Assembly (NCBI GenBank): GCA_023105745.1
Contig: JALGQZ010000013.1
Coordinates: 625,001-689,000 of the forward strand
Direction of reading: 5' to 3'
DNA length: 64,000 bases
Source of the DNA: Austropuccinia psidii
Taxonomy: Eukaryota > Basidiomycota > Pucciniomycetes > Pucciniales > Sphaerophragmiaceae
Position 1 is the first letter of the stretch; each line of letters opens with the position of its first letter. Below the pieces are notes generated by a model. That model was not told where the DNA came from. It worked only from the letters and a program-made list of their open reading frames with translations, and did not search any database. Below are positions 3,638 through 62,015 of this stretch, in pieces. The position numbers and the translations under genes are program-made.

Positions 3638-3647
3638 GGATAAAAGG
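3638..3647 (+). promoter_or_regulatory. TATA-like box of Gypsy-1 LTR
   Basis: The string GGATAAAAGG lies about 340 bases before the LTR end, at a position suited to a U3/R promoter. No start-site data are available; alternatives in this AT-rich LTR cannot be excluded. The downstream 400 bases lack ATG, as expected for a retroviral-type leader. Confidence 0.5.
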
Positions 3648-3982
3648 AGGGCTTTTCACAGCCAAAAACCTTTCCTCATCCTGCTCTTGAATAACCTACG
3701 TAGTAAACTGTCAAAAACAGTTTTACTCTTGGTTAATAATCAGGTATAATTATAAACTTAATTATTGTAGTCTTTGTTATTGTAACCCAACAGATAAAAC
3801 TGCACCCAGGGCTTTCAGCAGCGCTCACCACCACTATATTTCCATAGTAAAGCCCTTAAAATCCCAATTCAATCATCTTTTATCAACCTTTTATCTTTAA
3901 AAATCTATTTTTTACCGTGTCACAGTCATAGTTTTAGTTGTAAATAGCCTTATTACCTCTTCAACATAGACTCAGCCTGACA

Positions 3983-5805: not shown

Positions 5806-5826
5806 ATTAAAGCTAGCCAAGAGAGG

Positions 5827-8800: not shown

Positions 8801-10782
8801 GGGCTCTAGAAAAACTCCATTATTATTTGGAGGGTGCAGTCTTTGAAGTCTACACAGACTGCACAGCCTTGAAGTCTTTACTAAACATGAAGACTACTAA
8901 TAGACACATGCTGAGATGGCAAATAGCCATCCAGGAGTATAGAGGGAACATGACCATCATATACAAAGAAGGTAAAAGCCATACCAATGCAGATGGCCTT
9001 AGCAGATGGCCACTGGACAATGTCAAAAGCAATCCAGCTTATGACCCTGAAGTTGCTGCAAAAATTCCTATCCATTTTATGGAAATAAATAGGAAGAAGA
9101 ACTTCAGATTCTCTGAATGGGCACCAGGGATTGGTACCCTTGACAGTGGAAACACTGATTCAGAAGGGACAGAAACCCCCATACTGGGAATAAGTTCCTC
9201 AGAACTGCACAATGAATTTTTCAATGCAGTACTGAAATCATATGCTAAACACAAACAGTGTAGCATACTACTCCAACTCCTTCAACAAAAATACAGGATC
9301 CCAGAACTGGAAACCCAGCTGGAGGAACCCTGGTTGAGGGCCTATAAGGACAATAAATTCTTCCTTATAGATGGCCTGATTTATCACAGAGAAAAGCACA
9401 CCAGTGCACTCACAGTGATAGACAGAGACCACATCTCTTTAATCCTGCAGGAATGCCATGACTGCCCCTACATGGGACACATGAGTGAGGACAGGACTAA
9501 AGAGAGGGTAGAAAGCACAGCTTGGTGGCCCAAGTGGGAGCAAGAGTTGAGTGAATACATCAACACTTGTGAAAGATGCCAAAAGGCAAATAGAAAGCAT
9601 GGGAAGAAATATGGGTTGCTTCAACACATAGAAAAACCCAAACACCCATGGGAAACCATCAACATGGACTGGGTCACAGGACTTGTCCCAGGAGGCAAAG
9701 AAAACTACAATGCCTGCTTAATCATAGTTGATATGTTCAGCAAGAGCATGAGATGTCTACCATGCCATAAAGAGGACACAGCCATGGAAACTGCTCTGTC
9801 ATTTTGGAATAACATCATATCCACCTGTGGAGTCCCTAAGATCATAATTAGTGACAGGGACCCAAAATTCACATCTGAATTTTGGACCAATTTATATGAC
9901 ATGCTTGGCACCAAGCTTGCTTTTTCCACAGCTTACCATCCACAAACAGATGGCCTAGCTGAGAGGATGATCCAAACAATGGAGGACATCCTCAGGAGGT
10001 TCTGTGCCTATGGCATGGAATACAAGGACCATGAGGGATACACCCATGATTGGGTCGCCCTCTTACCAGCAGTCCAACTGGCTTATAATACAAGCCAGCA
10101 CTCTACCACAGGAAAAACACCTGCACTGGTAGAGAAAGGGTGGAATCCCCTGTTACCTGTGGATCACTTGAAGAAAAATCTTCTGACCATCCACCCCACA
10201 TCCAAAGACTTCCATGATATGTGGAAGAAAGCCTGTGATACTGCTGCTAAATGCATAGCTGAGGCCAAAGAGTATAACAAGCAGAGGTGGGACAAATCAC
10301 ATATGGAACCTGACTTCAAGGAAGGGGACCAGGTGTTAGTGTCTACACTGAACTTTAACAATCTCAAAAGGCCCAAGAAGATGAGAGACTCATTTGTAGG
10401 GCCCTTCACTATCATTAAGTTGATAGGGAAGAATGCAGTAGAGGTCAAGCTCACTGAGGAGTTTTCTAGGAAACACCCAGTCTTTCCAGTAAGCCTGGTC
10501 AAACCATACTTCCAAACAGAGGAGGATAAATTCCCCTCCAGGAAGAAAAACATCACTCCACCAGAAATAGTGGAAGTAGAAGACTCTCCTGGACCTGTGA
10601 GTAAAATCATCAGGGCCAGAAAAATCAGACTTAATGGGAAGGATCAGAGACAATATCTAGTCAGATTCAAGAACCAGACAGCTGACAAAGACAAATGGTT
10701 GGCAGAGGATGCCATACCAGATGGGAACCTTCATTTAAGGAGATTCAGAGCCTCTAGGAGGACTGAACAGTCTCATCAATGA
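5827..10782 (+). CDS. Gypsy-1 Gag-Pol polyprotein (CCHC, PR, RT, RNase H, IN)
   Basis: 1651 codons, ATG start. An N-terminal coiled coil (about residues 1-45) is followed by a capsid-like Gag region (about 110-300). The CCHC zinc knuckle C-x2-C-x4-H-x4-C is at residues 321-334. The aspartic protease DSG lies at 452-454. Reverse transcriptase carries YIDD at 791-794. RNase H follows, with catalytic D940 and the NADGLSR motif. Integrase has an HHCC finger and D1281, D1343, E1379, with exactly 35 residues between the last two (DD35E). The C-terminus (about 1595-1640) contains QYLVRFKN and DKWLAED strings resembling a divergent chromodomain, which would place the element among chromoviruses. It would make cDNA from element RNA in a virus-like particle and integrate it. 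All key catalytic residues are intact. Antisense open frames under it are shadows. Confidence 0.96.
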
Positions 10783-10795
10783 TGAGCCTTTTTTT

Positions 10796-10807
10796 AGAGG
10801 GAGGGTA
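10796..10807 (+). other. Polypurine tract of Gypsy-1
   Basis: AGAGGGAGGGTA immediately before the 3' LTR start TGTCAG, the expected plus-strand primer. It begins 13 bases after the pol stop codon and follows a short run of T. Confidence 0.9.
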
Positions 10808-12246
10808 TGTCAGCCTGTGACTCAAAACCAGAGCACAAGCATGACAGCTAAAATACCATAAACCAATGGTATAGCCAAAATACCACCAAAACATGGAGCT
10901 GAGCCAAATTAGCTCAAAAGTTATCAAAAGAAAGAGGAAAACTCACCTCTTTCTGAAAATATAAGTCCCATCACCATAGGACAAGAAATAACAAAGTTAT
11001 TCCTGCTCAAAGTTATTGCTGAGCATAAACCTTAATTTTCACCTCTCATCTAAAATCTAGAAGGAGAGGCTTAACCCCATCAAATGGGTATTCAAAATGA
11101 AGCTCTAAGCCAGGGCTATCTAATGGTGCTAGCCAAACTGAGCTAGCACCAGTATTACTTGAGTTATGGTCAAATTCAGACCAAATAAGGGTGAACAAAA
11201 CATTCACCTCTCATCTAACTTTTACAGTTTTAGTGTGAGATACCTAAAGTGGGTTTTTTTTGGAAAGAGCACAATCAGGGCTATCTGATGGTGCCATCCA
11301 TTTCCTCATAGCTCAACTACAACAGAAGTTATTGGCCAAACAAGCTTAATACAGCTTTTGCCCAGACCACGCCAATGTACAAAAATACTTGTACATGGGA
11401 TAACTTTGTCATATTTAATGATAGCCATGTCAAGTTGGGTACCATTGTGTAGAGCTCATACAGAGCTATTCAATGAACCAACTTTGAGCTTGATATCTCA
11501 AAAACTGACAGAGTTATGACCATTTTAAGGTTAAAATCCCACCTGCTGTCAGATACAGCCTTACCATGGGATAATATCCCATAACCATGAATATGAGGTG
11601 TCAAATAGACAAAGAAGCATGTTTTTACTTCAATACCTCATATGTCAGTCAATACTGGGGTCCCATACAGTTTCTGTACAGCATTCTACGCGTCATACAC
11701 GTCAGAATCAGGCTGTGAGGTCCCCAGATGAAAATTTTCACCCTGTATTGGTGAAATCCGCCCAGATGTGGTTTCAAAACCACATCTGAGCCCAATACAG
11801 AGTATACAGGCTGTTTGCAAACCACAAGCCTGTCATAGAGAGTGAAAAATCTTCACTTCCTCTATGTGGAAAGGTCTAGCAGCCTTTCCACCTCAATTTC
11901 AGGATAAAAGGAGGGCTTTTCACAGCCAAAAACCTTTCCTCATCCTGCTCTTGAATAACCTACGTAGTAAACTGTCAAAAACAGTTTTACTCTTGGCTAA
12001 TAATCAGGTATAATTATAAACTTAATTATTGTAGTCTTTGTTATTGTAACCCAACAGATAAAACTGCACCCAGGGCTTTCAGCAGCGCTCACCACCACTA
12101 TATTTCCATAGTAAAGCCCTTAAAATCCCAATTCAATCATCTTTTATCAACCTTTTATGTTTAAAAATCTATTTTTTACCGTGTCACAGTCATAGTTTTA
12201 GTTGTAAATAGCCTTATTACCTCTTCAACATAGACTCAGCCTGACA
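10808..12246 (+). repeat. 3' LTR of Gypsy-1
   Basis: 1439 bp, same ends as the 5' LTR. Of about nine differences from the 5' copy, five lie in the first 130 bases. One change (near 12157) creates an ATG absent from the 5' copy. The LTR is followed by the target duplication ATACT. Confidence 0.97.
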
Positions 12247-42089: not shown

Positions 42090-43916
42090 AATTCTGTGAG
42101 ATTTGTCTATGAAACTGCTGATAATATTACTATTAATCAACAGTACTATGACTGTTCTTATGAAATATAATAACAAAATGTTATTATAACCACAATTAAA
42201 TAATTAAAGAATTATTTCTTTCATTTGTTAAACACTACTAGTGATTTTAACAGTGAGCAAGTAATTTTCTACAAGAATCAATTACAAGAAGATTTTAATA
42301 ATAAATCTTCTTTTATTAAAATAATAAAATTATTTTAATATATAATTATCTTTTTCAAGAATAATTATAATGGTGATTCTTGAAGAAAACTAATTTTAGA
42401 GAAAAACTTTAAGAATTAAAAATAAATCACTCACTAATATTCCAAAGAACTTATTGAAAGATAAGATAGAGAGATTTGATGTAGAATTGTGGATTTTAAG
42501 GATCAAAATGATTTATAGCAGGATTACAACAATATATAGTTGGATTCTATGATTTCAAATCTTTCTGATTGATTCCGAAAGATTTAAAACACTTAAGAAT
42601 ATCTATAACTAATACTTACTTGTTGGTAATAATGATTTAAATGATAATAAGATGATAATGTGGAAAAAACAGCAACAGGAGGCCTCTTTTAAGTCAACAA
42701 CAGCTCACAGAGGCGTGCCATGGAGCAAACTGAAAAACCAGTGAGTGAGAAAACAATAAACCCTTTTGTATTATTGATTGCATCATCTGTTGTCACGTAA
42801 GAGTATCATAATTACTTAATTAATGCTTTTACATGACTACCAACCCCAATATGGTTAAGAATAAAAGGAGTAACATCTGTAAATCTTCTTTTATTCTAAA
42901 ATAATCATTGATTTCTCAAATTTATCCATGTTATTGGAAATTTCATCACAGGTTGTAGTTACTGTGAATTTTTGAAGATTCAGTGTTTCACGTAGAATAG
43001 CCAAAAATGGGCTGTAAGTAAAACTTTTTATTTTACTAGTAAAACCATGATTTTTTTTGGTTGTACCATATATAATACAGTTCTACATTAGTCCTGAACG
43101 TTTAAGAAAGATTCATTAAGAATTGTATTTTTAATGAATTTTTTAAGTTTTTACCTCATTTCTATGTAGAATTGCAAATATCAGTGTTTAACTGGTTGCT
43201 CTGAGGTAAATCAATGGATACAAGTCCGAAAAGGGTTTTAAGAACTCTTTTGGGGTTTATAAATGGAAAATCATTCAGAATTGACATGGTTACAGGAGTC
43301 TAAGTAGCTCTTTACCTCCTTGGCACGTCAAAATAGCAGGTTATTTGCTATTTTCTTAAGATTTACAGTAGTTGTAACATGGTAACCAAGTTCCCAAAAG
43401 TTTTTAGTTTACCAATTAGGCCAAGATCAGCCATGGATCCAAGCTTTGGAGCTGTCCACGCCTTTGAGGCCTCAGAAGTTGGGTACCCTGGCTCTCTTTG
43501 ATGTCTTTTGTCCCCCTTGCCTATTTTTCACGTCAAAATAGAAAATTAAGCTTCAAGTGAGATATCCACTATGGGTGTACCAAAATTCCATGTAAGAATA
43601 CCATGATATTAAGTGCTCAAAACATGCATAACACTATTCTTAGTGTATATGTAACATGGGATTCCTCACATTCCCATTATTTTGGTGTGAAATCAAGCAA
43701 AACAAGAATTTTCATGGATCTTTTATGTGGTATTGAAGTATTTTCCATATTACCACCTCAAAGAGTTAATTTGAGCTTATTCACTCCATGGAGCTACCCT
43801 AAGTGAATTTTTGTGTAGAATCCAAATCTGGTCTTAAATCCATGGATTGACTTACTCAATAAAAAGTTATTCATCTTTTCTGAAATCAAAAATGATGAAT
43901 TTTGGATATATGCATG

Positions 43917-44657
43917 TGTCACAGGGGCTCTTCGAAGTGAAGAGGGCCTGGCACTCAGTAAACTGGGACTCACTTATGGAGGGCTCAAAGATATGGTAAG
44001 AAGGAGTACACTGAAGAGTGTTAAAGATAAATTGCTAAAAGAATAAATATAAGAAAAGCAGCAACAAGAGTAAGAGTAAGAAATAGAAGAGCCAACCACA
44101 AACAAGTCCAAGTCCACTGTTTCAACCTGTCAGAATGGAAAGAGAAGGGTTAATAAAGATATGGCCACCCAACTCATACTGTACAGGCGAAGAGAGAAAA
44201 GGCAAAGACTCACTTAAAATTAAATAATTATAATACCCAATTATAAGGATAAGAATAATTATAAAATAATAAATAACTAAATTAATTAACTGGGGAAAAG
44301 TCCCCAGGGGGGAGAAAGAGGGGCTGGTATATGTGAGAATCACCAGCCCTGATCCAGAGGAAGAATTTTCATGAGAGTAATTGATGATTGAATTGAGTCT
44401 GGCCAATACAGGTCCTGTACAAGAGGTGTGGTGTATTTGAGTGATCATACAGTTCCATATTGGTGTATTGAAACTGTATTGGGTGAATCCAACCTGTACA
44501 GGTATTGACAGGCTGTATTGATGTACCAAGCTGTATGCATGTTTCAGAATGAAGATTGCTGAAACTGAATGCTGATGCAGATACTGGATTTGCTGGTTTG
44601 GGGTGTTTGAGTGGGTGTATGAATGAATACCCTTACCCCTGATGGATGGTTGTTACA
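43917..44657 (-). repeat. 3' LTR of Gypsy-2
   Basis: 741 bp. Compared with the 5' LTR it lacks 19 bp (at about 44417) between two CCTGTACA direct repeats, a typical slippage deletion, and has about four substitutions. Its outer end has the hairpin CTCTTC-GAAGT-GAAGAG. Confidence 0.96.
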
Positions 44658-44670
44658 GTATCCCCCTCTT
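44658..44670 (-). other. Polypurine tract of Gypsy-2
   Basis: On the minus strand AAGAGGGGGATAC directly precedes the 3' LTR start TGTAACA, the expected plus-strand primer. Confidence 0.85.
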
Positions 44671-45226
44671 GAAACTGGTGGGCTCCTGAACACCATAATA
44701 CCCTGCCACTGTTGAGTGGCATCTCAATATCCCCACATTTTTTCAAAAAATTTCTTTTTTAATTTTCTTTCCCTCTTGACCATTATCCTGAAAATCCTTC
44801 ATTACTTCTTCTCTCTCAAATTCAATTGATTCCCCCCCTTTTTCCACGTTTGAGTAAGTATTCCACTTCGAAGTATGCATTTCTTTTCTTCTGATTCAAT
44901 CAACCATGCCCTTGAGATGTGGCCTTGGGATATATCCCAGAATAAGGACCACTGAGCTCTTGTGCTCAAAAAATGATGCCCAATGAGTATATGAAGTGTA
45001 CTCATTGGGCAAGGCTTAATCCATTGCAAAATTGAAAATATTTCCTCCAAGGGGTCTTGTCCCCATTACCCATGGAAATTGCCTCAACAGCCCTCCAAAA
45101 TGTTTTGGGCTGTGGCCTTTACCCTGATGATTCTTGATATATCTTGATTTTTTATGGCCTTTTGGCCTTTTTGGGTGTTTTGGTGAATTTGGCCATAATT
45201 GGCCTTTTGGATGTTTTGGGGTCCTA

Positions 45227-45261
45227 CGGTCTGCGGGCCGTATACCGCGGTCCGTGGGCCG
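45227..45261 (+). promoter_or_regulatory. Cluster of seven CGG/CCG triplets
   Basis: CGG at 45227 and 45234, CCG at 45238 and 45245, CGG at 45248, CCG at 45252 and 45259, all in 35 bases of an otherwise AT-rich window. Zn(II)2Cys6 proteins typically bind CGG half-sites in pairs, and the gene downstream encodes a Zn(II)2Cys6-like protein, so self-regulation is a plausible inference. GC-rich composition alone could also produce the cluster. Confidence 0.5.
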
Positions 45262-45339
45262 TGGGGGTCAATGGAGGCCCCCAGGACCAAAATGGAGCCC
45301 CTGGGCCCAAATTTGCTGGGGGCCCAGAAATGGCCCAAG

Positions 45340-45347
45340 CATAAAAG
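45340..45347 (+). promoter_or_regulatory. TATA-like box of the antisense gene
   Basis: CATAAAAG lies about 80 bp after the CGG/CCG cluster and 195 bp before the first in-frame ATG (45542). Placement fits a Pol II core promoter on the plus strand. Confidence 0.5.
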
Positions 45348-45541
45348 TTCACCATACATGGCCTGGATCCATTAATGGGGTCCAGGACCATCAACATCCT
45401 GGCCTCCCCAAAGTTTCAGGGGAGGCCCTGGGTGATGAGTTCGGCCCCAAAGGGGTATGAACCTTCACCATAGAGGCTTTGAGGGGGGGCATAATTGAGT
45501 TATGGCCCCATTTCCTTGAGGTCAAATTCTTTTATCTTGAT

Positions 45542-46836
45542 ATGGAGTGGATTGATTCTGACGTCTTGAATCTTCTGCTTGCATATTCTTCAGTTATGAG
45601 TTCCAAACTGACTGAACTCACTGAATCTTCTCCTTCTGCACCGCCACCGTCTGTTCTTCATGGTTCTGGCGTCTTCAGTCAATTGTCCTCCCTTTCCATG
45701 GCGTCTTCTGGCCATTTTGATCCCTCCCAAACATATGATGGGTTCAGAGCAGTTGAAGTTCTTGATCCTGCCTGTACTGAGTGTTTGGCCAAGGGAAAGG
45801 ATTGCTTTCAACATTACAATCCTCGATCATCAAAATGCCATTTTTGTTTTGTTGGGAAGAAGCCATGCCGCCGTACCGGATCGACTTTGTCCCAGGTCAA
45901 GAGACACTTATGGAGCAGGAAAGATGGGCCTTATGGGCAGGAATTCCCCATTCTTGAGGAGCCTACCCCTGATGCCACTTCTGCATTTTCTCAATGTGAG
46001 TGATTTGCATATTTTGATTGAATTGGTGCTGATATCTTGATGTAGTGACTGGTTCCAGGCAGAGGGATGTGGCCAGATGGACTAATGTTGGAGGGTCCAT
46101 TCCAATTGGTGGTAGGCCCATCCACTACAGCTCAGAAATTCCAATTTCAAGGACCAATGCTGATGGAGTGGTGAAAGTAGTGAAGAAGCTAAGAAGAATT
46201 GTTGATTCCCCATCAGATCCAGATGCTGAAGGAAGTGATGAGTTGGATGGTGAAGAAGTTCAAGTTATTCCTCATTCCATTGGCCATCCATCCAGCAATT
46301 CCTCTTCTCAACCTCTTGCCAACACCAGATTCCAAAGTCAAGTCATTCCCAGTACTCCAAGAACCTTCCAACCAATGCTTGCCTCCATTTCTACAACCCT
46401 TCCTCCTCCTTCACCAACTACTTCCCACACCACCAGGCCTGCCTTGAATCCAGAAGTAAGACCATCCCCAGTTCAACAGCCCAGGAACTCACCCATAAAC
46501 ACCTCCCGTCAACTCCAACCTGTGGTCAGTTCCAGCAGAAGAAGAGATGGATTGTCCCCTCTGCCGTTTCCTGCCGCTCAAGTTTTTCAAAGAAGAGAAC
46601 GTTGGCCTATCCGGGTTACCAGAGAAGATCCCAACATGGTTAGTGAAAGTCAAGATGCTGTGGCAAGATTGTTCAGGAGGGTTGATAGGAATAGCAGAGA
46701 GGTGATTATGTATGCCAATGACAGGACTATCCCAGGTACTGCTTCTGAAGAGATGGCTGCAAAATTTGCCTGGTATGAAGATGAGTTGATAAATGATTTC
46801 CAGAGAACTTTTGATGATTTGGGTAGAGATAACTAG
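45542..46836 (+). CDS. Zn(II)2Cys6-like DNA-binding protein carried antisense in Gypsy-2
   Basis: Two exons, 45542-45995 and 46046-46836, joined over a 50-nt intron with GTGAGT donor, CTGAT branch motif near 46029 and TAG acceptor; phase is kept and no stop intervenes (414 residues). Other in-frame starts are ATG 45596 and ATG 45698 (362 residues); the last has a good context. Cysteines 78, 81, 88, 99, 102 and 109 form C-x2-C-x6-C-x10-C-x2-C-x6-C, the exact Zn(II)2Cys6 spacing, with lysines in the loops and a proline in the linker. A Ser/Pro-rich middle and an acidic, helical C-terminus (ending DDLGRDN) follow, as in many fungal transcription factors. No fungal-specific TF domain was recognised. 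It lies opposite to and convergent with pol. It is intact while gag-pol is broken. I recall close A. psidii homologues of unknown function. Confidence 0.82.
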
Positions 46837-47476: not shown

Positions 47477-50400
47477 TCAAACTCTTGAGGTATTTGGACC
47501 AGGCTTGTCTGGATACAATGAGTGGAAGTCCTTGACAAGATCTGGTGAGTTGGTAAGGTTTGAAGCTAGTTTCCAAGTGGTTCTTTCTGGGTCTTCACTG
47601 AATCCTTTACACTCTACAAGATACCATAATTTACCTCTTTTGAGTTTTGAGTCCAGAACCTGAGCCACTTCCCATTCTTCTTGCTGCTCCACTAAAACTG
47701 GTGGTGGCGGCAATTGATGACGATTTGGGATAGTTGAATTCTTGACTGGTTCTAATAAGGACACATGGAATACAGGGTGAACTTTCTTCCATTGCTGAGG
47801 CAACTTGAGGTGATATGCATGACTGCCAATCTTCTTCAGAACTTCAAAAGGTCCCAACCATCTTTCTGATAATTTCTTGGTGGGTCTTGTTGTCTTGATG
47901 TTCTTGGAAGCTAGCCATACTTTGTACCCAGGTTGGAAATCAGGTGGAATTGCTCTATTTCTATCTGCATACTTCTTGAATCTCCTTATTGCTGACTCTA
48001 ATTCTTCTTTGACAACTTTCTGTACTGATTGGAGTTTTGTTGATAACTTCCCAGCAGGTGAGTCTTGAGAAATATGGATTGAGTCAAAGCTGGGATTTCT
48101 TCCATAAATGGTGAAAAAAGGTGATTGCTTGGTTGATTAATGTTCTGCATTATTATAGGCAAATTCAGCCAGAGGGAGCCAGGTGTACCAGTCATCTTGA
48201 TGATAGCTGACATACATCCAAAGGTACTGTTCTAGTATCTGATTTACCCTCTCTGTCTGTCCATCTATTTCAGGATGAAAGGCAGTTGAAAGATCTCTTG
48301 ATATCTTGAGCTGCTGACACAATTGAGTCCAAAATGATGAAACAAATAAGGATCCTCTATCACTGACAATACTGACTGGAAGTCCATGCTTGGAAAATAC
48401 ATGACTAATGAAGATTTGAGCTAAATCCAGAGCAGTGATTGTGCCATAAGTTGGAATGAAGATTGCCATTTTTGAGAATCTGTCCACAACTACTAAGATT
48501 GAATCAAAGTTGTTTGACAGTGGCAATTGAGTGATGAAGTCCATTGATAATGAATTCCAAGGACCAGACAGAATTGAAAGAGGCTTGAGTAATCCAAACT
48601 TCTTGTGATGAATGTTCTTGTTTCTTGAACATTGCTGACATGAGGACACATAGTCCTTAATGAATTGATTCATGCCAGCCCAATAAAAATCCCTCTTGGT
48701 GAGCTTGAGGGTCTTCTCCTGGCCAGGATGGCCAGCCAATGGTGAGTCATGACACTTTTGAAGAATATTGAGTTGAAGTTCTTCATTGCTTGGGATTACC
48801 ACTCTATCTTTGAATAATAATAACTTGGCTTGAGGTTCAAGAGAATAATCTGGAACTGATTCACCTCTGGCTAGTTGCTTGAGTATTTCTTTATAGTCTT
48901 TGTCTTGCCATACTTCTTTTTGAATCTTGTCCACTAAATCTGAGAAAATTTCCACTTTGATTGAGAAGAATCTTGACTCTTGAATTCCATCTTGCGTAAG
49001 TACTTGATGAAAATTTTGAGGATTCTTGCTGATGAAGTACACCCCCCTCTCTGGGTACACGTCGTCCCGACGTGACAAGGCATCTGGTAAAGTGGCCAGC
49101 CTGCCTGGGCGGTAAGTGATAGTGAAATGAAATTCTGAGAGAAATTCAGCCCAACGGGCCTGACGACGAGTAAGAACTTTGGAAGACATGAAATACTGCA
49201 AGGAAGAGTGGTCTGTCAAGACCTCAAAAGGATTGGAAAGAGAAAGAAGAAATTCCCTCCAGCGCTTGAGAGCCCAAACTATGCCAAGGAGTTCCTTGTC
49301 ATGAATTTCATAGTTGAGTTCAGCTGGTGAGAGCTTGTGACTATCAAACGCAATGGGATGCTTTCCAGAGTCATTCACCTGACTCAGTACGGTGCCCAAT
49401 GCATAATCAGAAGCATCAGTCTCTACAATAGTAGGTAGAGATGGATTGAAATGGGATAAGATAGGAGCAGAGGTGAAAGCTTCTTTGAGTGCTTGAAACT
49501 GACTAAGAGCTTCCTCATTGAAGATGAAAGGAGAATCTTTTTTGAGAAGGGAAGTGAGAGAAGTGATTTTTTTGGAATAATTTTTAATGAAACGCCGATA
49601 AAAATTGGCAAAGCCAAGAAAGGATTGAAGAGCCTTGATGTTTTTGGGCTGAGGCCAATTGAGGATTTGCTGAACTTTTTAAGAATCCATCTTGAGGCCA
49701 TCACTTGAAACAACATAGCCCAAGTATTCCACACTTGAGGCATGGAATACACACTTGGAGGCTTTGGCAAACAGATTATTGTCCCTCAGTCTTTGGAGGA
49801 CAGAGGCCACATGTTTGACATGTTCCTCCTCAGAACTGGAAAAGACCATAATATCATCTAGATAAACCACAACAAACACATCCAAAAAATCTGCAAAGAT
49901 ATCATTTACTAGATTTTGGAAAGAAGCAGGAGCATTGGTCAAACCAAATGGCATGACCAAATACTCATAACTACCATATTTGGTTCTAAAGGCAGTTAAG
50001 TGCTCATCCCCCTCTTTGATTCTCAGAAGGTTATATGCACCACGCAAATCTATCTTGGAGAAGATAGTGGAACCGTTGAATACGGTAAGAAGCTGGTTCA
50101 TAGGAGGAACAGGGTATCTGTTCTTCCTAGTGACAGCATTGAGTTTGTGGTAGTCAACACACAAACGAAGACCTCCATCCTTTTTCTTGACAAAAAGGAC
50201 AGGTGCTCCTGTTGAAGAGGAGCTTGGTCTAATGAAACCTTTCTCTACATTCTCTGAAATGTAGGCCCGCAGTGTTTCTGACTCTTGATTTGATAATGAG
50301 TAGATAACACCAATTGGAGGTAGAAGACCCTCCAATTCAATATGGTGATCACAGGCGCGGTGTGGAGGAAGTTTCTCTGCTTTCACCTTGGAGAATACAT

Positions 50401-51161
50401 CCAAATATTGGTGATAAGCAGGAGGAACAACCTTCAACACAGTTTTGATTTCTTCTGGCTCTTCCTCCTCATCCCACTGCTCCTCCAGGGATGCATGAAA
50501 AGATAAGGGAGGAAGGTCCATATCCCCTTGAAAGAGATGAAGTGAAGATATGGCTACATCTTCTCCAACATCCTTCATCTCTTGATTGAAGTAATGACTG
50601 AGAGGGAATAATGGAAGGGATATGGACAGAAGAAGGAAGGGAAGGTGTCTTAAGTTCACCGACCAGAGCAACACTGTTGACAGCAGTGGCTAAGTCATTA
50701 CTATCAGAAGGAATAATACCACTAGAATCCTTATGATTAGAATCATAGGTGATCAATCCATTTTTCCAATCAATAATGGGATTAAAATGGTAAAGGAAAT
50801 CATAGCCCAATATCAGGTCTTCTCCCTTGGGTGAATCTATGATAAAGAAGTCCCATTCAAAGCTTGGGAAGGAAGGCAAGTCAACTACCCACTTGGTATA
50901 ATGGGTGATGAACAAGGCAGGGGATTCATTAGAATCCAAAATGAAAAGAGGAATCTTTTCAGAGAGCTCTGACAGAGTCAATGAGTACTTGAGAACAAAA
51001 TTCTTTGCAATAAAAGAGTTTGTAGCACCAGAATCAATGAGAATACTATAAAAAATATCAGAGACAGAAGAAAAAATAAGAAATTTTAAAGATTTCTTGA
51101 CACTAGTATTCAGAGTGCACAAGTGTGCTCTTGAAGGAAATAAGTGAGAACCATTGAACAC
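47477..51161 (-). pseudogene. Gypsy-2 pol: protease, RT, RNase H, integrase, chromodomain (broken)
   Basis: Protease LIDSGATNSF near 51020-51050. RT spans about 50650-49680 with YLDD at 49853-49864. RNase H has TDHSSLQ and LPDALSRRD. The integrase HHCC finger ends SCQQCSRNK, and the core has MDFITQLP, SDRGSLF and TERVNQ. A C-terminal chromodomain, WYLVECKGF, is near 47600. Lesions: a frame change between protease and RT (around 50620-50650), TAA at 49679-49681 after KMDS, and TAA at 48137-48139 after NNAEH. In the chromodomain the usual WKGF is CKGF and TWEP is TWKL, so ligand binding is doubtful. From memory of intact copies, both stops replace serine codons. Catalytic residues themselves look conserved, so decay is recent. 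Confidence 0.93.
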
Positions 51162-51175
51162 ATCATGATTCCCAC

Positions 51176-52537
51176 TCAGGCTTTTCCCTGCTTGCTAGGG
51201 AAGCCTCTTGATGATGACCCAGGCTTGTTCTGAGGTCTCTTGAAGCATTTTTCAATTGGGTGCTTTCCACCACAATAAGTACACAACCCCTCTTTAATCC
51301 TCCTCTCCTTTTCAGAACCAATTAATTTATTGTCCTTATTGAGGAGAGCAGCATGGGGCTTGTCCTTTGAAGCTTGAAATTACTTTCCCTTCTTGTTCTT
51401 CTTCTTGTGAGACCTATTTGAAGATGAGTTTTGAGGAGGCCTAGATTGATTGGATCCAATGACTGGAGGCTTCTTCTCTTTATTTCCACCCTTTTCTTTT
51501 TTCCTCTCATGATATCTTGTGTCTAATTCTAAAGTGACATCCATAAGTTCTTGAAGAGTATCAAACGTTCCAGGGTGAGAAGCCAACTGATCCAATAATC
51601 TTGATGCCAATCCTCTTCTGTAAGCATGGATATAAGCTCTTTCCCCCCAATCTCCAATTCTTGACATTAAGCTTCTGAAATCTGCAATGTACAAGGAAAC
51701 ATGACCACTCTCCTTCATCCTCAAGTTGTCCAACTCTTGTTCAGCTTTCCTGACTTCATTGGGGTCACCAAACAGAGTGAATAATTGAGATTCAAATAAT
51801 GGCCAATTATTGAGGAGGTAGGAAGGGTCTTCATTGGAAATATTTGAGAGATAGGGTTCAATCCACTTTCCAGCTCTACCAGTGAGAAAAGAAGTTGAGT
51901 AAAGAACTTTCTTCCTGTCAGAGAAGAAATTTGCTGGATCATTATGGAAGATTAATTGACAGGATTGGATAAATCCTCTCAATTTATGAGCTTGAGTACC
52001 ATCAAAAGAATCAGGTGCCTTCATGGATGGGGTCTTGAAAGCAGGGGCTTTTGAATTGTCCCTGGGAGCAACTGCTTGAGTGAGTTGCCCCATGAATTGA
52101 GTCATCTGCTCCATCATCTTGAGGAGACTTGGATCAGTTTGAGAGACAAGAGGTTGACTAGAAAGGGCTAGATTAGAACCCTGAGGCACCTCTGGAGCAT
52201 TTGCCAAGGCATCTGCCACTTCAGTTTCCCCAGAATCTTCCTCTTCCACAGACTCTTCCCCCTCTTCATCTTCAACTTCCCCTTGTCTTGCTCTTTCACC
52301 TTCAGACATGCCAGGGTAGCCACCCAAAAGTCCAGAGAAAGATCTTGATCTTCTATATTTCATTCCACCTCTTCTTGAGGGTGCTGCTCCTTCCATTGGT
52401 GGTCCTCTGTCCAAATTTGCACACAGTTGATGAACTGATGGTGTGCGGTCAAGAGGAGCCCTTGCTGTAGGAGTGAAAACAGCTTGAATTCTTTGGGATC
52501 TAGTATTTTTGGCTGGGGGACTATGCTGAACTGGTAT
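51176..52537 (-). pseudogene. Gypsy-2 gag (start lost, internal stop)
   Basis: Capsid-type Gag: a PVQHSPPA N-terminus, an acidic E/D-rich stretch, then the retrotransposon Gag core with FDGTQAHKLRGFIQSC, ADFRSLMSRIGDW and LELDTRYHERK, a basic tail, and a CCHC zinc knuckle CTYCGGKHPIEKC. At the position where intact relatives (from memory) begin with Met, this copy has ATA (52535-52537); the frame is open upstream but without ATG. A TAA at 51380-51382 cuts off the zinc knuckle, which continues in the same frame to TGA at 51176. The truncated protein would lack the nucleocapsid part. Confidence 0.92.
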
Positions 52538-52639
52538 TTTGAATAAAATGAAATAAAACTTGATGATACTTTGAATAAAATAAGGCTTGACCAAAACAAT
52601 CAAATGAGAATCTTGATGAACTTGAGAAATCAATCAATA

Positions 52640-53284: not shown

Positions 53285-54044
53285 TGTCACAGGGGCTCTT
53301 CGAAGTGAAGAGGGCCTGGCACTCAGTAAACTGGGACTCACTTATGGAGGGCTCAAAGATATGGTAAGAAGGAGTACACTGAAGAGTGTTAAAGATAAAT
53401 TGCTAAAAGAATAAATATAAGAAAAGAAGCAACAAGAGTAAGAGTAAGAAATAGAAGATCCAACCACAAACAAGTCCAAGTCCACTGTTTCAACCTGTCA
53501 GAATGGAAAGAGAAGGGTTAATAAGGATATGGCCACCCAACTCATACTGTACAGGCGAAGAGAGAAAAGGCAAAGACTCACTTAAAATTAAATAATTATA
53601 ATACCCAATTATAAGGATAAGAATAATTATAAAATAATAAATAACTAAATTAATTAACTGGGGAAAAGTCCCCAGGGGGGAGAAAGAGGGGCTGGTATAT
53701 GTGACAATCACCAGCCCTGATCCAGAGGAAGAATTTTCATGAGAGTAATTGATGATTGAATTGAGTCTGGCCAATACAGGTCCTGTACAGCTGTACAGAA
53801 CCTGTACAAGAGGTGTGGTGTATTTGAGTGATCATACAGTTCCATATTGGTGTATTGAAACTGTATTGGGTGAATCCAACCTGTACAGGTATTGACAGGC
53901 TGTATTGATGTACCAAGCTGTATGCATGTTTCAGAATGAAGATTGCTGAAACTGAATGCTGATGCAGATACTGGATTTGCTGGTTTGGGGTGTTTGAGTG
54001 GGTGTATGAATGAATACCCTTACCCCTGATGGATGGTTGTTACA
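53285..54044 (-). repeat. 5' LTR of Gypsy-2
   Basis: 760 bp. It contains a dense series of CTGTAC, CTGTAT and AATACAG variants at about 53771-53925, including CTGTACAGCTGTACAG. This copy keeps the 19 bp missing from the 3' LTR. Confidence 0.96.
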
Positions 54045-54139
54045 GCATGACTTATGAGTTATGAATAATTCAAAATTTATTTTTAAGATAATTGTGGCCT
54101 ATTTGGGTATGTAAAATATACCTCAAGTATCACAAATTC

Positions 54140-56577
54140 TCTCATCTCTTTTCAAATAGATAATAATTAACTGGTATATTTTGAGGTGTTTATTTTGAAA
54201 AATATATAGAGATTTAATGTTTTCAATAATAATAATTAAAATTCTAATAAAATCTATATAATAATATAGGAATAATATATTTTAATAAAAACATTTTCTA
54301 TCAAAAAAAAAAATTAATACAAATAAATTAATACTTTATAATATAATATTAATTTAACAATAATATTAGAAAAAAATATTTTTATTAAGAAAAATAATTT
54401 AATTAAATTATATTATTTTAACTTTTATAATATTTATAATGAGTATAATTTAAAAAAAAAAGGAAATAAACTAATATAATCTTAAAATTAATAATTTTGT
54501 AAATTTTTATTCTTTTAATAAAATAATATAAAACTAAATAAAATTAATATAATATTTCATTAATTAAATTATTTTAATCTTTTTTTTTTTTTTTTTGATT
54601 TATTAAAGTTTTAAGATAATTTCTTTCAAATTTGATAATAGAAATTTTTTATTTTTTTTAATAAATTTTGTTTTTTTTTGTGATAAAAACTTGAAAAAAA
54701 AAAAAAAAAAAAAAAAAAGGAATATAAAATAGTACATTTGATAACATTAAGTTTTCAAAATAAGTTAAGATATTTATTTTATTAGATGTGTAATGGATTT
54801 AATTTTTAAAAATTGGGTCACATATTTAATATTTAATATTGGGAAGGTAATAAAATATAAAGGACTTTAAGATGTTTCCAAATAAATTATTAAAATTCTT
54901 TATAAACAAATGATTAAGTTAGTTTAATAATTTCAAAAAAAAAAAAAAAAAGTTTATAATTAACACAATATTATTAATAGGTTCCCACAAGTACATGATT
55001 AAAATGGAATGAATAGGAAAGAAAATTCATTTTAAAAACTTCAAGTAATTTTGGGGCTATTTATGGTTCCCATATTCCCATTATATCAAAATTCCAAGAT
55101 GAATGAAAGACTTAGGTGAACCAAAAAAGTGTTACACTAATTTTTTCTTTACTTTGTGGTTGATGAGGTATGGAATTTTTTTTTTAATTTGAGTGTTTTT
55201 TTTGAGTTTATCCAAAAATCTTAATATATCTGTTTTTTTTTATATTTAGTTTTTTGGGGGGCCTTTCTGGGTCCCTAAATGATAGTTTTTTTTTTTCTAA
55301 ATCTTAACTTTGAAGTTATTTTATCAAAAACAAATTATACCAAGATTCCAAATGAATTATAAATTGATTTGTGAGTCTTCTGATCCTTTTGATGTATGGA
55401 TTTTATTACCTATCTTATTACCAAAAAAACCAAATGAAGTCAAATTAAACTTTATAAATTCTTTTAAAAATTAATTTTTCTCTGGCCAAATTTGATTCTG
55501 TATTATATTTAATGATTAATACTACATAATGATGGTGGACCACATTTTTAAAACTCAAAAATATATTCCAAAAACCTTTAAGACTACAATTTTATAAGCC
55601 TAATATTGCACAAAAATCACCATGAGAAAATTGGCTACACCTTACAACAGGTGTTGAATTTAGAAAAATAGGTTAAAAACAGATTATTCTGAGCTTGAGC
55701 ATGTACTTTGAACTAAGTTAAAACCAGAAATTCATTGTTTTGTGATATTCCAAATCATTCTCAGCAACTAAAATTTTATTTAACTTTTCATTTCCTTTAT
55801 CCTTTTCTTATTTCATTAAGTTTAAGATATTTTATTATTATTTTTCTTATTCTACATAAAATTTGATATTTATAAAGTATAATTTCATATTCTTTATAAT
55901 ATTAATTTTACTTAAATTTAAATCTAAGATTTAAGCTCAGATATATATTTTTAATATAGAAAATAGTTTATATTTTTCTTTTTAATTCCCTTAGATATAA
56001 AAAAACTATGTTTATATTTAATTAAAGATTTTTATTAACCTTTATAAATATATTATTATAAAATAAATTTTATCAAATTTTATAAATTAAAATTAATTTC
56101 TTATAAAAAAATAATACTATTTTATATAAAATTTCAAAAAAAATAAAAATAAAAATAATTAATTTCTAATTATATATATATTTCTTTTTCTTTTTTTAAA
56201 AAAAAAAAAAAAAATGAGGATTGATTTCAATTTTTACTAAATTTAAAATTAGGATTTATTAATGATATAATTTTTATTATTATTATTATTACTTCTTTTA
56301 TCATAATCATCTTTTTTTTTTTTTTTTTTTCTTAATTTTGAATTTTAATTTTAATTTATTATAATTTCATTTTTTTTTTTTTTTAATTATAATTATTTAA
56401 AATTATTTAAAAATTTTGAATTTTTTTTTTTTTTTTTTTTTCTTTTTTTTTTTTTGAATTTTAAAACTTTGTTTTTTTCTTAAATTTAAAATTATTTTAA
56501 TTTAATTTAATTTAATATTTTTTTTTTTTTTTTTTATAATAACTTTAAAAGAAAAAAAAAAAAATTTAAGTAAAAGG

Positions 56578-56610
<33 letters not shown>

Positions 56611-58152
56611 AATAACCTATTAATTTAATATTTTGAAAAAAAAAAATTAATTAAATTAAATTGAATTAATTTTATAAAAAAATAGTTTTTTTTAAAAAAA
56701 AAATAGTATTTTAATTATTAAAATTATTAAAAATTAAAATTAATAATAAAAAACTATAATAATTTTTTTTTTTTTACTTTAATAGGATATTAAATATTTT
56801 TATAATTCTTAAGACAAAAAAAAAAAAATTAAATAAATAAAAATAAAAATTATTAAAAAAGACTTCTTTTAAAAAAAATGTTTTTTTTTGAATAAATGAT
56901 AAATTTAATGAAGTGAATATTTAACCTCTCTTTTTTATAAATTTTTTGGTTCAATATAATTATTCATTTCAAAATTTATTTTAAATTTCTTTTCTTTATA
57001 TTCTGAGTAAAATAAAAAATTATTTTGATGAATTATCTTCATATTTTTTGATATATTTTACTTAAATTTAATTTAAATGAATAATTTAAAACTACTTTTT
57101 TGTCAAAGCTCAAAGTTTTTTTTAGAGTACAATAAGACATTAAGGTTCCTATTTAATAAATATTATCAAGTTTTTTTAGATTCAATTTAATAATTCAAAT
57201 GAAAGAGTTTATTGTAAAATCAATTTTATTATAGAAAATCTTTCCCAAAAATTAAATTTTCTTGAAAAATAAAATAAAAATAAACTAAAACTAATTATTT
57301 TTTAGTTATGTTAAAGAGTACATAAAAGGATATTTATAAAAAAAAAAAAGAAATCAAGATTTGAATATTTCAGTTAAATATTAAGATTTTCAAGAATATC
57401 AATTAAAAATTAAATTCTTTTTAATTTAATCTTAAACACAAAGATTATTATTTTTTTTAAATATCAAAATAATTTATTTTATTAGAAATATTTTAAATGA
57501 TATTATGAGATCTTTTGTTGAAATATAAATACTTATAAATATAAATTTAACTAGAAAAAAAAACTCTTTTTTTTTATATTTTAAGTAATTTTTAATAGTT
57601 ATACTGAATTTCTTTAGGAAATAATTTCAAATATTTTTTAAATTCAAAAGGATTTTTTTTCATAATTCATATTTTAATTATTTTAATATTCCTTTTAAAT
57701 AATATCTATTTATTCTCTCCAAAGAATTTGACTCAAATTTTTACTTTAAGTTTCTTATTAATTATTAATACAAAAGATTTATGTAAACAGATTTTCCTAT
57801 ATTATATTTTTCAGTTATATAAATAATATTAATACACAATTTAATTAACTTAAGCCTATTAATAGCATTTAATATAAATATCATTAATTTCTTTTTCTTA
57901 TTATAAGTAGCTGAAATTAACTTTTAATCTTTCAAAAAAAAAAAATTCTGAAAAATAAATTCTGAGAAAAAAAATAAATATAAAATTGTAACACTTCTAT
58001 CTTTTAAATCAAATTACATCAATATAAATAAGATAAATTCTTGCATTTATTAAAAAAAATAATATTAATTTAGTTTTTTTTTTTCTTATATTAAGGAAAA
58101 ATTCAAACTTTTTTTAAGATTTATATAATTTAAATAAATTTCTTTCATTCTA

Positions 58153-58184
<32 letters not shown>

Positions 58185-59699
58185 AGATTTATTAAATAGA
58201 AATTTTTAAATTAATTTCTTAATTAATTTTTATTCAAATGAGTTTCTTTCTTTTTTTTTTAATATATTTAAGTTAAGAGTATTATTTTTTGAAGATAATT
58301 ATTAAATTAATTATAAGATTTCTCAATTTTTTTTTTAATTAAAGAAAATATTTGAATTTCAATTCATCCTAATATTTAATTATAAGCTTAAAATACAAAA
58401 AAAAAAATTATATAATATGAAAGAAAATAATTGAAGGAAGAATTATTTGTTAAACCAATTTAAATGAATAATATTTAGCTGATAAGATTTCATCAAAAAG
58501 TGTGATATTAAACCTATGGATAAATTTAAATAAGCTCCCCTCAAATTTCAAATGAAAAATTGGTTTGTTTGTTTTTTTGACAGATAATATCTAATATTTA
58601 GCTAAAACAAAAAAAAGAGCTAAGGAATACTCATTTATTGGCTTTCTAAGCCTTATTTTCTTTTTTAAAATTTAAAATCTAAAAAAAATAAAAAATAATT
58701 TCAATTAACTCAAATATATTTTGGTTTATTTGATTCTTGAATAATTTTTTTTCACAAAAAAAAAAACAATAAATTAAACTTTTTAATTTATTTTAATATG
58801 AAAAAAAAAAGATTTATATAAATAAATAATTTGAAAGAAAATCTTTTTCATTAGTAAAAAAAAAAATATTTGAGAAATGGATATCATCTTTATTTTTATG
58901 ATTCAAAGTTATTCTAAGATTTAAAAATATTCAAAATCTTAAAATTTATTTAGGAGGAAATTTAGATTAAAATAAAATAAAAAATTCTTAAAATTAGAAA
59001 TGAAAAAAAAAAAAAACATAAAATCTTATTTTAATTTTTAAAAAATATTTTATATATAAGTTATTAAATCTATTAATAGGAATTTCTTAGATTAAATTCC
59101 TTGAAAGATTTCTCAAGAATATAATATTTTTTAATAAAGCTCTTTTAAAAAAATACTTTATGTTTAATTTTTAAATTAATTTTATTTTTCATTAGAGGGA
59201 ATAATTGAAAGATATATTTAAAATTTCCATAAATAATTTTAAAATGTAGAGTTTTAATAATAAATTGATGTTGAAAATCTTTTAAATTTTAAAAGAAAGG
59301 CTTTAATTATTAAAAATTTATCTTATTTAAGTAAATTTATTTTAAAAAATGAATAAATCTTTAATTCTTATAAAACTTTTTAATCATTTTCTCATAATTG
59401 GAATCAAAAAGTTATTTTTAATCTTCATTCAGAATTTAAAAAATAAAATTAAAAAATTCAAATAAAATTTTTTATTAAAAATTTACTATTAATTTAAAAA
59501 TTTATATTTTTTAAAATTAAATAATTGATTGAATCGAATTGAATTTATTTTAATTTAGAAATCTCATTTAAAAATCTTGATTCTCCCACCTAGTCCTAAC
59601 GATTAATAAAATTTCAAAAATTAAAATTATGAATTAAATTAAATTAAATTATTTTTATTTTTATTTTTATTTTCATTTTTAAAATTTTAAAAAAAAATA
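54140..59699. other. Extremely AT-rich, homopolymer-laden intergenic region
   Basis: About 5.5 kb made almost entirely of A and T, with many A or T runs of 10-28 bases (for example poly-A near 54692-54718 and poly-T near 56400-56450). No open frame, repeat family or relic element was recognised. It abuts the PP2C gene on one side and the split solo LTR on the other. It differs in texture from the TE-derived DNA elsewhere in the window. Confidence 0.75.
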
Positions 59700-62015
59700 A
59701 TGAAAGATTTAATTCTTAAATTAAATTTTTTTAAAAAAAATTCATCCAAATTTTTATTAAAAACTTATCATAATCGATCATTATCAATTAAAATTTCATC
59801 TTCAAATTCAAATCCACCAAAAAATAGGGCTTTAGTTGATTTAGCTTTAATCACTACTGGTTTCATATCAATAGGTGCTACTATCATTTGGATTAAATCA
59901 AATCAATCTCAAAAATTTAATGATCCTCTAAATCTCAATTTAAATCAATCTAATCAACAAAATCAATTCGAAATTCCTTTATCCAGTCAGTAAGTTCATA
60001 AAAATCTTGTTTGTTTGTTTTCTTAAAATATTAAATTAAATTAATCTTAAATCTTAATATCTTATTTTTAGTACTGGTTCTCCTACTACCAAAAAAGTTT
60101 TAACAATGTTATCAATAGATCAAGTCGATAAATTATTAAAAAAATATCAAACTACTTTCTTAATAGATAGATCTCATAATCCAATCAATCGTAAGTGATG
60201 GTGACTTTAATCAATCTTAATCTAATCTAATCTAATCTATTTTATTTTATTTTATTTTATTCAATTCTATTCTTTTTAGGTTATGATACTAATCATTTAG
60301 CTTCTAACGCTCCAATCGAAGATGATTCAATTTGTACTATCCTCACTCGTGATCAATCTTCAAATCAAAATATTCAAAATATTCAAAATATTCAAAATAC
60401 TCAAAACATTCAAAATACTCAAAATGATATGCTCTTCTTTGGAGTCTTTGATGGTCATGCTGGTTGGCAAACTTCTAAACTCCTAGTCGATCAATTGGTT
60501 CCTGCAGTAAATAGAGAATTACATGCTCTCTTTCGTAGTGATCCTTTTTATGTCACAGCTTATTTAACTAAACAATTAAATCATTCTTCTAATATTATCA
60601 AAAAAACTTCAGATCAATCTATTCCCACTAAAATTCAAATCTCAAAAAATCTTTGGACAAAAATTTGGGATTTAGTCACTTGGAATCAAACTTCAAATCA
60701 AATCATCATCAAAAATTTAGATTATGATGATCAAATGATCAAATTAGCCATTCAAAACGCTTTTATCAAATTAGATGATTATATCATTGGTCGTCCACTT
60801 CAATTATTACAAAATCATCAATCTAAAAACTCAAATCTATCAAATCCTCATTCAAATGAAATCACCCCTCAACAAACTGCCTCTTTACAAACCCTTTTAC
60901 CTGCCCTAAGTGGTTCTTGCGCTTTATTAGCTTACATTGATACCCTACAATCAAAGTAAGCTTCTTCAATTAAAAAAAAAAAAAAAAAAAAAACAACTTA
61001 AAACTTAAAATCAACCCTTCTTCTTCTTCTTCTTCTTAAACTATTACTTGCATTTTTTTATTTATTAACCTTTTTCTTTCAAGAGTTCATGTAGCTTGTA
61101 CAGGTGATTCAAGAGCTGTAATGGGTCTTTGGGACCCAAAAGCAAATAATGGATCCGGTCAATGGAAAGCTCAATTACTTAGTGAAGATCAAGAAGGAAT
61201 GAATCCAAAAGAAGTTGAAAGGTTAATCATTCTAATCTTAAACTTTTCTTTTAACTTTTCAATCTAATCAAATCTACTTAAATTCTTTTAGAATTAAAAC
61301 TGAACATCCTCCTGCTGAACAAGAAAACCTCATTCGCCGAGGTAGAGTCTTAGGCGGCTTACAACCGACTAGAGCTTTTGGTGATGCTCGTTACAAGGTA
61401 ATTAAAACTTGAAAAAATTCTTAATACTTTAATAATCATTAAAACTTTTCAATTCATTAGTGGCCTCTCGGAATTCAAGAAAAACTTTATGAAGCTTTTT
61501 ATCCTACAAGTAAACCTAGGCGTGACCCTCCAGATTATCTTACTCCTCCTTATGTTACAGCTAAACCTGAAGTCACATCCACCTTACTTCCAAATCGTTC
61601 AGTTACTGATAAACCTGCCTTTATAGTCTTAGCCACAGATGGCTTATGGGATAGGTTAGAAACTGCTCAAGTCGTTGGTTTGGTGGGTACCATGATCGAA
61701 TTAACAGCTCAAAATCCAGGTCAACCCCCCCAACCAAAAGTTTTAGATAATAATCAAGTCGCTGGACCTAATAAAGTTCAAGTCTTAAATTTACCTGGTA
61801 GCTCTAATTCTACAGTTCATGATCCTACAAATACTCATATCCCTAATCAACAAACAAATCAGCAATCATTTATCTTTGAAGATAATAATTTCGCAACTCA
61901 TTTGATCAGGAACGCTTTAGGTGGTGCAAGTAGGGAAAAAGTTGGCGCATTACTTAGTATTCCTGCCCCTCATTCAAGGAGATATCGTGATGATATCACT
62001 GTCACTGTTATGTAA
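59700..62015 (+). CDS. PTC5: Mitochondrial PP2C protein phosphatase, Ptc5 / PDH-phosphatase type
   Basis: Mg/Mn-dependent serine/threonine phosphatase; this subfamily dephosphorylates and activates mitochondrial pyruvate dehydrogenase. Exons: 59700-59989, 60072-60190, 60280-60955, 61084-61221, 61292-61397, 61461-62015; GT-AG introns of 63-128 nt; phases agree; 627 residues. The basic N-terminus looks like a mitochondrial targeting sequence and is followed by one membrane segment (about residues 46-66). PP2C motifs: RYDTNHLASNAPIEDD, DGHAGWQTS (D194), SGSCALLAY, GDSRAV (D370), GGLQPTRAFGDARYKW, LATDGLWD (D503), and RDDITVTV (D620-621). DGH-GW-TS and GGLQP-RAFGD-RYKW point to Ptc5/PDP rather than Ptc1-4. 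A (NIQ/NTQ)n low-complexity run lies just before the first catalytic motif. Intron 3 has a CTT microsatellite. Codons are strongly AT-biased, as is its surroundings. Confidence 0.93.

What the first reader, a model, noticed from the sequence alone, without database searches (positions are those of the whole stretch)
45542..46836. Retrotransposon-borne antisense gene with a Zn(II)2Cys6-type cysteine cluster
Gypsy-2 carries an intact two-exon gene on the opposite strand between pol and the 3' LTR. Six cysteines have the exact C-x2-C-x6-C-x10-C-x2-C-x6-C spacing of fungal binuclear-zinc transcription factors, and the protein otherwise has the Ser/Pro-rich and acidic make-up of a regulator. The surrounding gag-pol has at least four lesions while this frame is clean across a spliced junction, which suggests selection at the level of the element family or recent mobilisation. 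Antisense frames exist in some plant Gypsy elements, but I know of no described Zn(II)2Cys6 gene inside an LTR retrotransposon.
Basis: partly seen in the sequence, partly recalled or inferred. Interest (0 to 1): 0.88.

Follow-up and report, generated by a model that had tools for sequence, protein, structure and literature searches.

The report
Jumping gene's opposite-strand six-cysteine gene
In what is most likely the myrtle rust fungus, a young retrotransposon carries on its opposite strand an extra gene, predicted to be spliced from two pieces, whose protein has just six cysteines in a zinc-cluster-like pattern and would likely act in the nucleus to regulate the retrotransposon itself.

Summary
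On the + strand at 45542-46836, between pol and the 3' LTR of a minus-strand Ty3/Gypsy chromodomain element, lie two open exons with a 50-nt GT..AG intron, together coding 414 aa. The only six cysteines are spaced C-x2-C-x6-C-x10-C-x2-C-x6-C. The insertion is young (4 differences in 742 aligned LTR bases, 5-bp target duplication). Hundreds of related proteins are in the database; all 149 listed are Austropuccinia psidii. In eight copy groups Cys is the commonest residue in 47 of 48 cells.

Membership of the Zn2Cys6 (Zn_clus) family is not supported: no Pfam match, and a profile comparison gives 0.8% against 93-99% for true members. The clean frame of so young an insertion is no evidence of selection. 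Antisense genes at this place are a known class, with a fungal precedent (brtn of Boty).

Best reading: an element-owned nuclear regulator with an independently arisen zinc cluster (function inferred). The window's densest CGG/CCG cluster lies about 280 nt upstream of its start codon, a candidate target. Expression, splicing and DNA binding are untested.

The parts
43912..43916 (.). target site duplication GCATG, left
   Evidence: GCATG stands directly outside both LTR ends (sequence printed)
43917..44657 (-). 3' LTR (element on minus strand)
   Evidence: self-blast; LTR alignment
44660..44671 (-). purine-rich tract (minus strand) next to the 3' LTR, polypurine-tract-like
   Evidence: read from sequence
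44658..45541 (+). leader between the 3' LTR and the antisense start codon; presumed promoter and 5' UTR (inferred)
   Evidence: position; the exon 1 frame is open back to 45461 only
45227..45262 (+). CGG/CCG cluster: two 15-nt repeats 21 nt apart; candidate target site (inferred)
   Evidence: densest CGG/CCG cluster in the 64 kb; 1 of 1000 shuffles of the leader reaches 7 in 40 nt; repeat D5
45341..45347 (+). ATAAAAG, TATA-like (recalled motif, untested)
   Evidence: read from sequence
45542..45995 (+). antisense gene, exon 1 (the start codon could also be residue 19, where coverage by the first 120 deposited models jumps from 13 to 94 rows)
45773..45868 (+). codons of the six-cysteine array, residues 78-109
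45996..46045 (+). intron, 50 nt, GT..AG
   Evidence: same junction by a strict pattern in 65 of the 112 deposited models that span it
46046..46836 (+). antisense gene, exon 2 with stop codon
46618..46833 (+). C-terminal region, residues 343-414, least variable between copy groups
   Evidence: 10 of 72 sites variable
51380..52633 (-). gag (Ty3 capsid), ends in an in-frame TAA
   Evidence: Pfam Ty3_capsid
50469..51194 (-). protease segment, in another frame than gag and RT
   Evidence: Pfam RVP_2; frames
49679..50689 (-). reverse transcriptase, ends in an in-frame TAA
   Evidence: Pfam RVT_1
48137..49678 (-). RNase H and integrase, ends in an in-frame TAA
   Evidence: Pfam RT_RNaseH, Integrase_H2C2, rve
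47477..48136 (-). integrase tail with SH3_Tf2-1 and chromodomain
53285..54044 (-). 5' LTR
54045..54049 (.). target site duplication GCATG, right

Best explanation
The retrotransposon carries, on the strand opposite to gag-pol and between pol and its 3' LTR, a gene of two open exons whose predicted 414-residue product has only six cysteines, in a zinc-cluster-like array, and would likely be a nuclear, zinc-binding regulator of the element's own family. Shown by sequence: position, strand, exons, intron signals, cysteine array, and hundreds of related proteins in the database. Inferred: an antisense promoter in the 0.9-kb leader makes an mRNA that is spliced; being antisense explains how an intron survives in an element that copies itself through RNA, since sense genomic RNA carries only the intron's complement. 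Inferred: the six cysteines bind two zinc ions and, with nearby basic residues, contact DNA. Inferred, and the most testable step: the target includes the CGG/CCG repeat cluster at 45227-45262 upstream of the gene itself, so the protein would control its own promoter and could keep that stretch open and unmethylated, in the manner of transposon-encoded anti-silencing proteins (VANC). The zinc cluster would have arisen independently of the GAL4-type family.
For: Gene structure and exact array. 627 related proteins at E<=1e-3 for the window protein and 895 for a profile of a divergent group (120 listed each), so the gene spread with a large family. In eight copy groups (145 of 149 rows) Cys is the commonest residue in 47 of 48 cells, in some only just (11 of 22, 4 of 7, 5 of 9). 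Between groups the C-terminal 72 residues vary at 10 sites against 41 of 81 in the middle, whereas private changes are near-even (Fisher p 2.4e-4): constraint on protein regions while the lineages were active. Densest CGG/CCG cluster of the whole window in its own leader; CGG pairs are typical Zn2Cys6 targets (PMC5559640, passage seen). Basic stretches KKLR, RRR and RRER, 47 acidic and 47 basic residues.
Against: No Pfam match for the protein; Zn_clus not among the matches of 80 relatives. Profile comparison with five Zn2Cys6 sequences 0.77% probability, with the halves paired out of register. Over 149 relatives the Cys columns are lost somewhat more than mutation predicts (127 observed, 92.5 expected, ratio 1.37 against 1.14 for all 335 sites used; permutation fraction 0.73); only 33 of 109 covering rows keep all six; one group has F at Cys 88 (5 of 9). 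Between groups the array region (11 of 32 sites) is not less variable than the middle (p 0.51) and is more variable than the C-terminal region (p 0.03). Both LTRs have no CGG or CCG, so control of the LTR promoter through such sites is unsupported. Two of the four models that span the CGG cluster lack seven codons there. No RNA, structure or binding data.
Confidence: 0.45

Rival explanations
1. An accessory protein of the retrotransposition cycle (for instance nuclear import of the pre-integration complex or nucleic-acid chaperoning) that binds zinc but is no promoter-specific regulator.
For: The review of such antisense ORFs proposes roles like those of retroviral accessory proteins (PMC7264820, section 7); the protein has basic stretches, and its most constrained region lies outside the cysteine array.
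Against: No Pfam link to gag or integrase; a separate, intron-bearing antisense unit suggests separate timing (inference).
Confidence: 0.2
2. The antisense transcript, not the protein, does the work: it pairs with genomic RNA and regulates the element through double-stranded RNA.
For: Position fits; PMC7264820 (section 8 passages) names this option for antisense ORFs.
Against: The 120 relatives listed keep 56-93% identity to the window protein; between-group variation is uneven along the protein.
Confidence: 0.15
3. A true Zn2Cys6 transcription factor captured from the host genome.
For: Exact cysteine spacing, CGG cluster next to it.
Against: Searches find no relation by sequence; no relatives outside A. 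psidii among the 36 proteins of 382-1214 aa.
Confidence: 0.12
4. A passenger frame without present function, carried along by the element.
For: Most relatives that cover the array have lost one or more cysteines (76 of 109 covering rows) at no less than the mutational rate; a young insertion needs no selection to stay open.
Against: Between-group pattern; the pair of open frames is not reached in 1000 shuffles.
Confidence: 0.08

Closest known systems
Antisense additional ORFs between pol and 3' LTR (aORF-3R) of plant Gypsy elements: Grande gene23, RIRE2, Retand (PMC7264820: passages and sections 5 and 7; PMC11963269: abstract and passages)
   Same: same strand, same place, spread over a copy family; Grande's product is reported nuclear, and Retand's antisense TRP28 protein is predicted to bind DNA
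   Different: the words zinc and intron do not occur in the main text of either paper, so no cysteine array or intron is described there in those words; no sequence relation tested
brtn of Boty-like elements, Botrytis cinerea (Zhao 2011; paper not held, known only through passages in PMC7264820, PMC8365987, PMC4227169, PMC5987419)
   Same: antisense gene in a fungal Gypsy element whose gag-pol also has a chromodomain
   Different: BRTN letters were not available; no protein from outside Austropuccinia was found in the length range searched
Fungal Zn2Cys6 transcription factors (GAL4, PPR1, HAP1)
   Same: cysteine spacing; CGG triplets nearby
   Different: no profile similarity, no Pfam match
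VANC anti-silencing proteins of VANDAL DNA transposons (PMC5735166, abstract and passages seen)
   Same: proposed way of working: a transposon-encoded protein acting on a short motif repeated in its own element
   Different: DNA transposon, plant; function shown there, not here

Membership tests
Fungal Zn2Cys6 (Zn_clus, PF00172) | C-x2-C-x6-C-x5..12-C-x2-C-x6..8-C (pattern recalled) | tested here: met
Fungal Zn2Cys6 (Zn_clus, PF00172) | match to the curated Pfam model | tested here: not met
   0 families for the protein; the 59-residue array has only DUF6791 at E 0.17; Zn_clus not among the 14 weak families of 80 relatives (80 chosen of the 144 then in hand)
Fungal Zn2Cys6 (Zn_clus, PF00172) | profile similarity to known members | tested here: not met
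   0.77% against 93-99% for five members each held out in turn; controls with Cys kept and the rest permuted reach 3.84%, mean 0.29%
Fungal Zn2Cys6 (Zn_clus, PF00172) | basic residues between Cys 2 and Cys 3 | tested here: inconclusive
   LAKGKD against GAL4 RLKKLK; two Lys only
Fungal Zn2Cys6 (Zn_clus, PF00172) | binds two zinc ions and DNA | not testable with these tools
   no assay; structure prediction switched off
aORF-3R (antisense ORF between pol and 3' LTR) | position and orientation | tested here: met
aORF-3R (antisense ORF between pol and 3' LTR) | present in many copies of the family | tested here: inconclusive
   627 and 895 related proteins, but their place inside elements was not seen, as the genome search did not complete
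aORF-3R (antisense ORF between pol and 3' LTR) | own antisense transcript | not testable with these tools
   no RNA data held
brtn homologue | sequence similarity to BRTN | tested here: inconclusive
   36 of 36 hits of 382-1214 aa are A. psidii; BRTN letters not held, shorter relatives not all listed
Ty3/Gypsy chromovirus | order PR-RT-RH-INT with chromodomain, flanked by LTRs and a short target duplication | tested here: met

The most novel reading that the evidence does not exclude
An LTR retrotransposon has evolved its own sequence-specific regulator: an antisense, intron-bearing gene coding a binuclear zinc-cluster protein that arose independently of the GAL4 family, binds CGG repeats planted in its own leader, shields them from methylation and so keeps its element family transcribed in one of the largest fungal genomes.
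Probability: 0.2. Interest if true: 0.85.

Novelty: new variant of a known kind. Interest (0 to 1): 0.55.

Why it matters
Antisense genes in LTR retrotransposons have been described since the 1990s, and the 2020 review I read in part (PMC7264820) gives their functions as unknown. This one makes concrete, cheap predictions: a zinc-binding array, a named candidate DNA target and a splice junction. If it is a self-acting regulator it would help explain how Gypsy elements overran a genome of about 1 Gb in a fungus that methylates its transposons, and it would be a case of convergent evolution of a zinc cluster in a selfish element.

Tried and rejected
Chance motif: rejected (once in the window, 0 in 60 shuffles). 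Antisense shadow of a sense-strand gene: the longest minus-strand open stretch overlapping the gene is 126 codons (not scanned for domains). Zn_clus homology: all negative. 'Clean frame means selection': rejected by the expected number of changes. Alternative zinc ligand His 91: Asn is the commonest residue there in one copy group, so six-cysteine binding is preferred. Relatives in viral contigs: 80 stretches matched a pattern, none encodes a relative. CGG sites in the LTRs: none.

Full report
What is there. The gene lies on the + strand at 45542-46836. Exon 1 (45542-45995) and exon 2 (46046-46836) are joined by a 50-nt intron with GT..AG ends. Read without splicing, the first frame stops inside the intron. 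The joined frame codes 414 residues with exactly six cysteines, all in the array C-x2-C-x6-C-x10-C-x2-C-x6-C. The array occurs once in the six-frame window and not at all in 60 dinucleotide shuffles. The open frames alone are less striking: 4 of 1000 shuffles of the region have a stretch of 267 codons or more, none with a second of 180 or more.

The host element. It lies on the minus strand, with LTRs at 43917-44657 and 53285-54044, four substitutions in 742 aligned bases and one 19-nt gap, and the duplicated target GCATG on both sides. Pieces of its minus strand match Ty3 capsid, protease, RT, RNase H, integrase, SH3_Tf2-1 and chromodomain models: a Ty3/Gypsy chromovirus. Gag-pol is broken by three in-frame TAA stops (gag, RT/RNase H, integrase), and the protease piece stands in another frame. 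The antisense gene sits between pol and the 3' LTR.

What the clean frame means. From the LTR difference about 3.4 substitutions and 0.13 nonsense changes are expected in the gene since insertion (indels not modelled). An intact frame is thus no sign of selection. About 13.9 substitutions are expected in gag-pol; three stops and a frame change look like more than that, so the copy may have been defective already and moved in trans (inference).

Relatives. The window protein has 627 relatives at E<=1e-3, a profile of nine divergent ones 895 (there only the 7998 candidates sharing most words were scored); 120 are listed in each case. A third search, shifted to proteins of 382-1214 aa and scoring residues 40-414, gave 36 hits, 36 of them A. 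psidii. The 149 distinct relatives listed in the three calls are all named Austropuccinia psidii MF-1, so the window most likely comes from that rust. Relatives in other species cannot be excluded, because the first two lists were cut. Of 149 models 112 span the junction and 65 of those show the same splice by a strict pattern; of the 47 others 40 were printed, many differing by a substitution near the junction and some by another model. The models are depositors' predictions; I did not see whether RNA supports them.

Constraint. Results point both ways. Before the counts 1523 residues in stretches under 50% like the majority were masked, and columns with fewer than 60 rows were left out. Over the 149 relatives the six Cys columns are lost at least as often as codon mutability predicts (127 observed, 92.5 expected, ratio 1.37; all 335 usable sites 1.14), and 33 of the 109 rows that cover all six keep them, the window's own included (150 rows). 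Many copies are evidently dead. Sorted into groups (12 clusters of 149 rows; 8 with five or more members, 145 rows), the commonest residue is Cys in 47 of 48 cells, in some only just; the exception is Cys 88, F in 5 of 9. Sites that differ between the commonest residues of groups are uneven: 10 of 72 in residues 343-414 and 41 of 81 in 226-306, while private changes run at 0.046-0.061 per residue in nine of ten regions and 0.079 in 110-119 (these differ among regions, p 0.008). The contrast of the two regions has Fisher p 2.4e-4, that of all regions p 0.043. The array region (11 of 32) does not differ from the middle (p 0.51) and is more variable than the C-terminal region (p 0.03). So selection is indicated for the C-terminal region, and for the array only by the recurrence of its cysteines in the groups.

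Is it a Zn2Cys6 protein? By spacing yes, by descent not on this evidence. Pfam gives no family for the protein up to E 10, and Zn_clus is not among the weak matches of 80 relatives. The PDB gives no relevant match for the alignment (two weak ones, E 0.47 and 1.1) and none for the array alone. Profile comparison of 33 intact arrays with GAL4, LAC9, PPR1, HAP1 and Cep3 scores 0.77% probability, where each true member against the others scores 93-99%; arrays with the Cys kept and the rest permuted average 0.29% and reach 3.84%. It may work like a zinc cluster without being of that family.

A candidate target. The densest CGG/CCG cluster of the 64 kb is at 45227-45262, about 280 nt before the start codon: seven triplets within 40 nt, reached in 1 of 1000 shuffles of the leader; seven of the leader's ten CpG lie there. 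It includes two 15-nt repeats 21 nt apart, 87% alike. Most well-studied Zn2Cys6 proteins bind pairs of CGG (PMC5559640, passage seen). Both LTRs have no CGG or CCG. Twelve of the 149 relatives have models that match the leader; four span the cluster: P0151 and P0149 retain related sequence there, P0036 and P0120 lack seven codons, so the repeat probably varies in number. That the protein binds here is inference; a CpG cluster could survive for other reasons.

Literature. Ten paper searches were made. Antisense ORFs at this place are a known class in plants and in Boty of Botrytis (PMC7264820: passages and sections 5 and 7; PMC8365987, PMC4227169, PMC5987419: passages). Zhao 2011 on brtn is not held. 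Retand antisense proteins are predicted to bind DNA (PMC11963269, abstract and passages). Transposon-encoded VANC proteins bind a short motif and strip methylation from their own elements (PMC5735166, abstract and passages). Passages of the A. psidii genome papers report over 90% transposons, mostly Gypsy (PMC8063080), and methylation-linked CpG loss (also PMC12774611); the words antisense and zinc have no occurrence in either main text. A rust transposon paper (PMC12210899, passages) has no occurrence of antisense. In these searches I found no report of a Zn2Cys6-like gene in an LTR retrotransposon; most papers of subscription journals are not in the library.

Verdict. An antisense accessory gene with many relatives and an unusual cysteine array: a new variant of a known kind. 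A self-acting nuclear regulator is the most likely function, at 0.45.

Noticed in passing
relatives of the gene (P0003-P0151): The decay spectrum is odd: outside CpG, G>T and C>A changes (28-30 per 1000 opportunities) are as frequent as transitions at C and G (22-33), other changes 10-18; at the six Cys codons the loss is to Phe 77 times and Tyr 6 times in 109 rows.
   Followed up: partly
54000-60000: GC content falls to 11-19%, with only short tandem arrays found (units of 1-51 nt).
   Followed up: partly
2544-12246: A second LTR element on the + strand: LTRs 99.4% identical over 1439 bases, an open 1658-aa pol frame with RT, RNase H, integrase and SH3_Tf2-1 but no chromodomain match.
   Followed up: partly
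61461-62012: Part of a protein phosphatase 2C frame (E 1.2e-7).
   Followed up: no
44977-45011: A perfect 13-nt inverted repeat with a 9-nt loop in the leader of the antisense gene.
   Followed up: no
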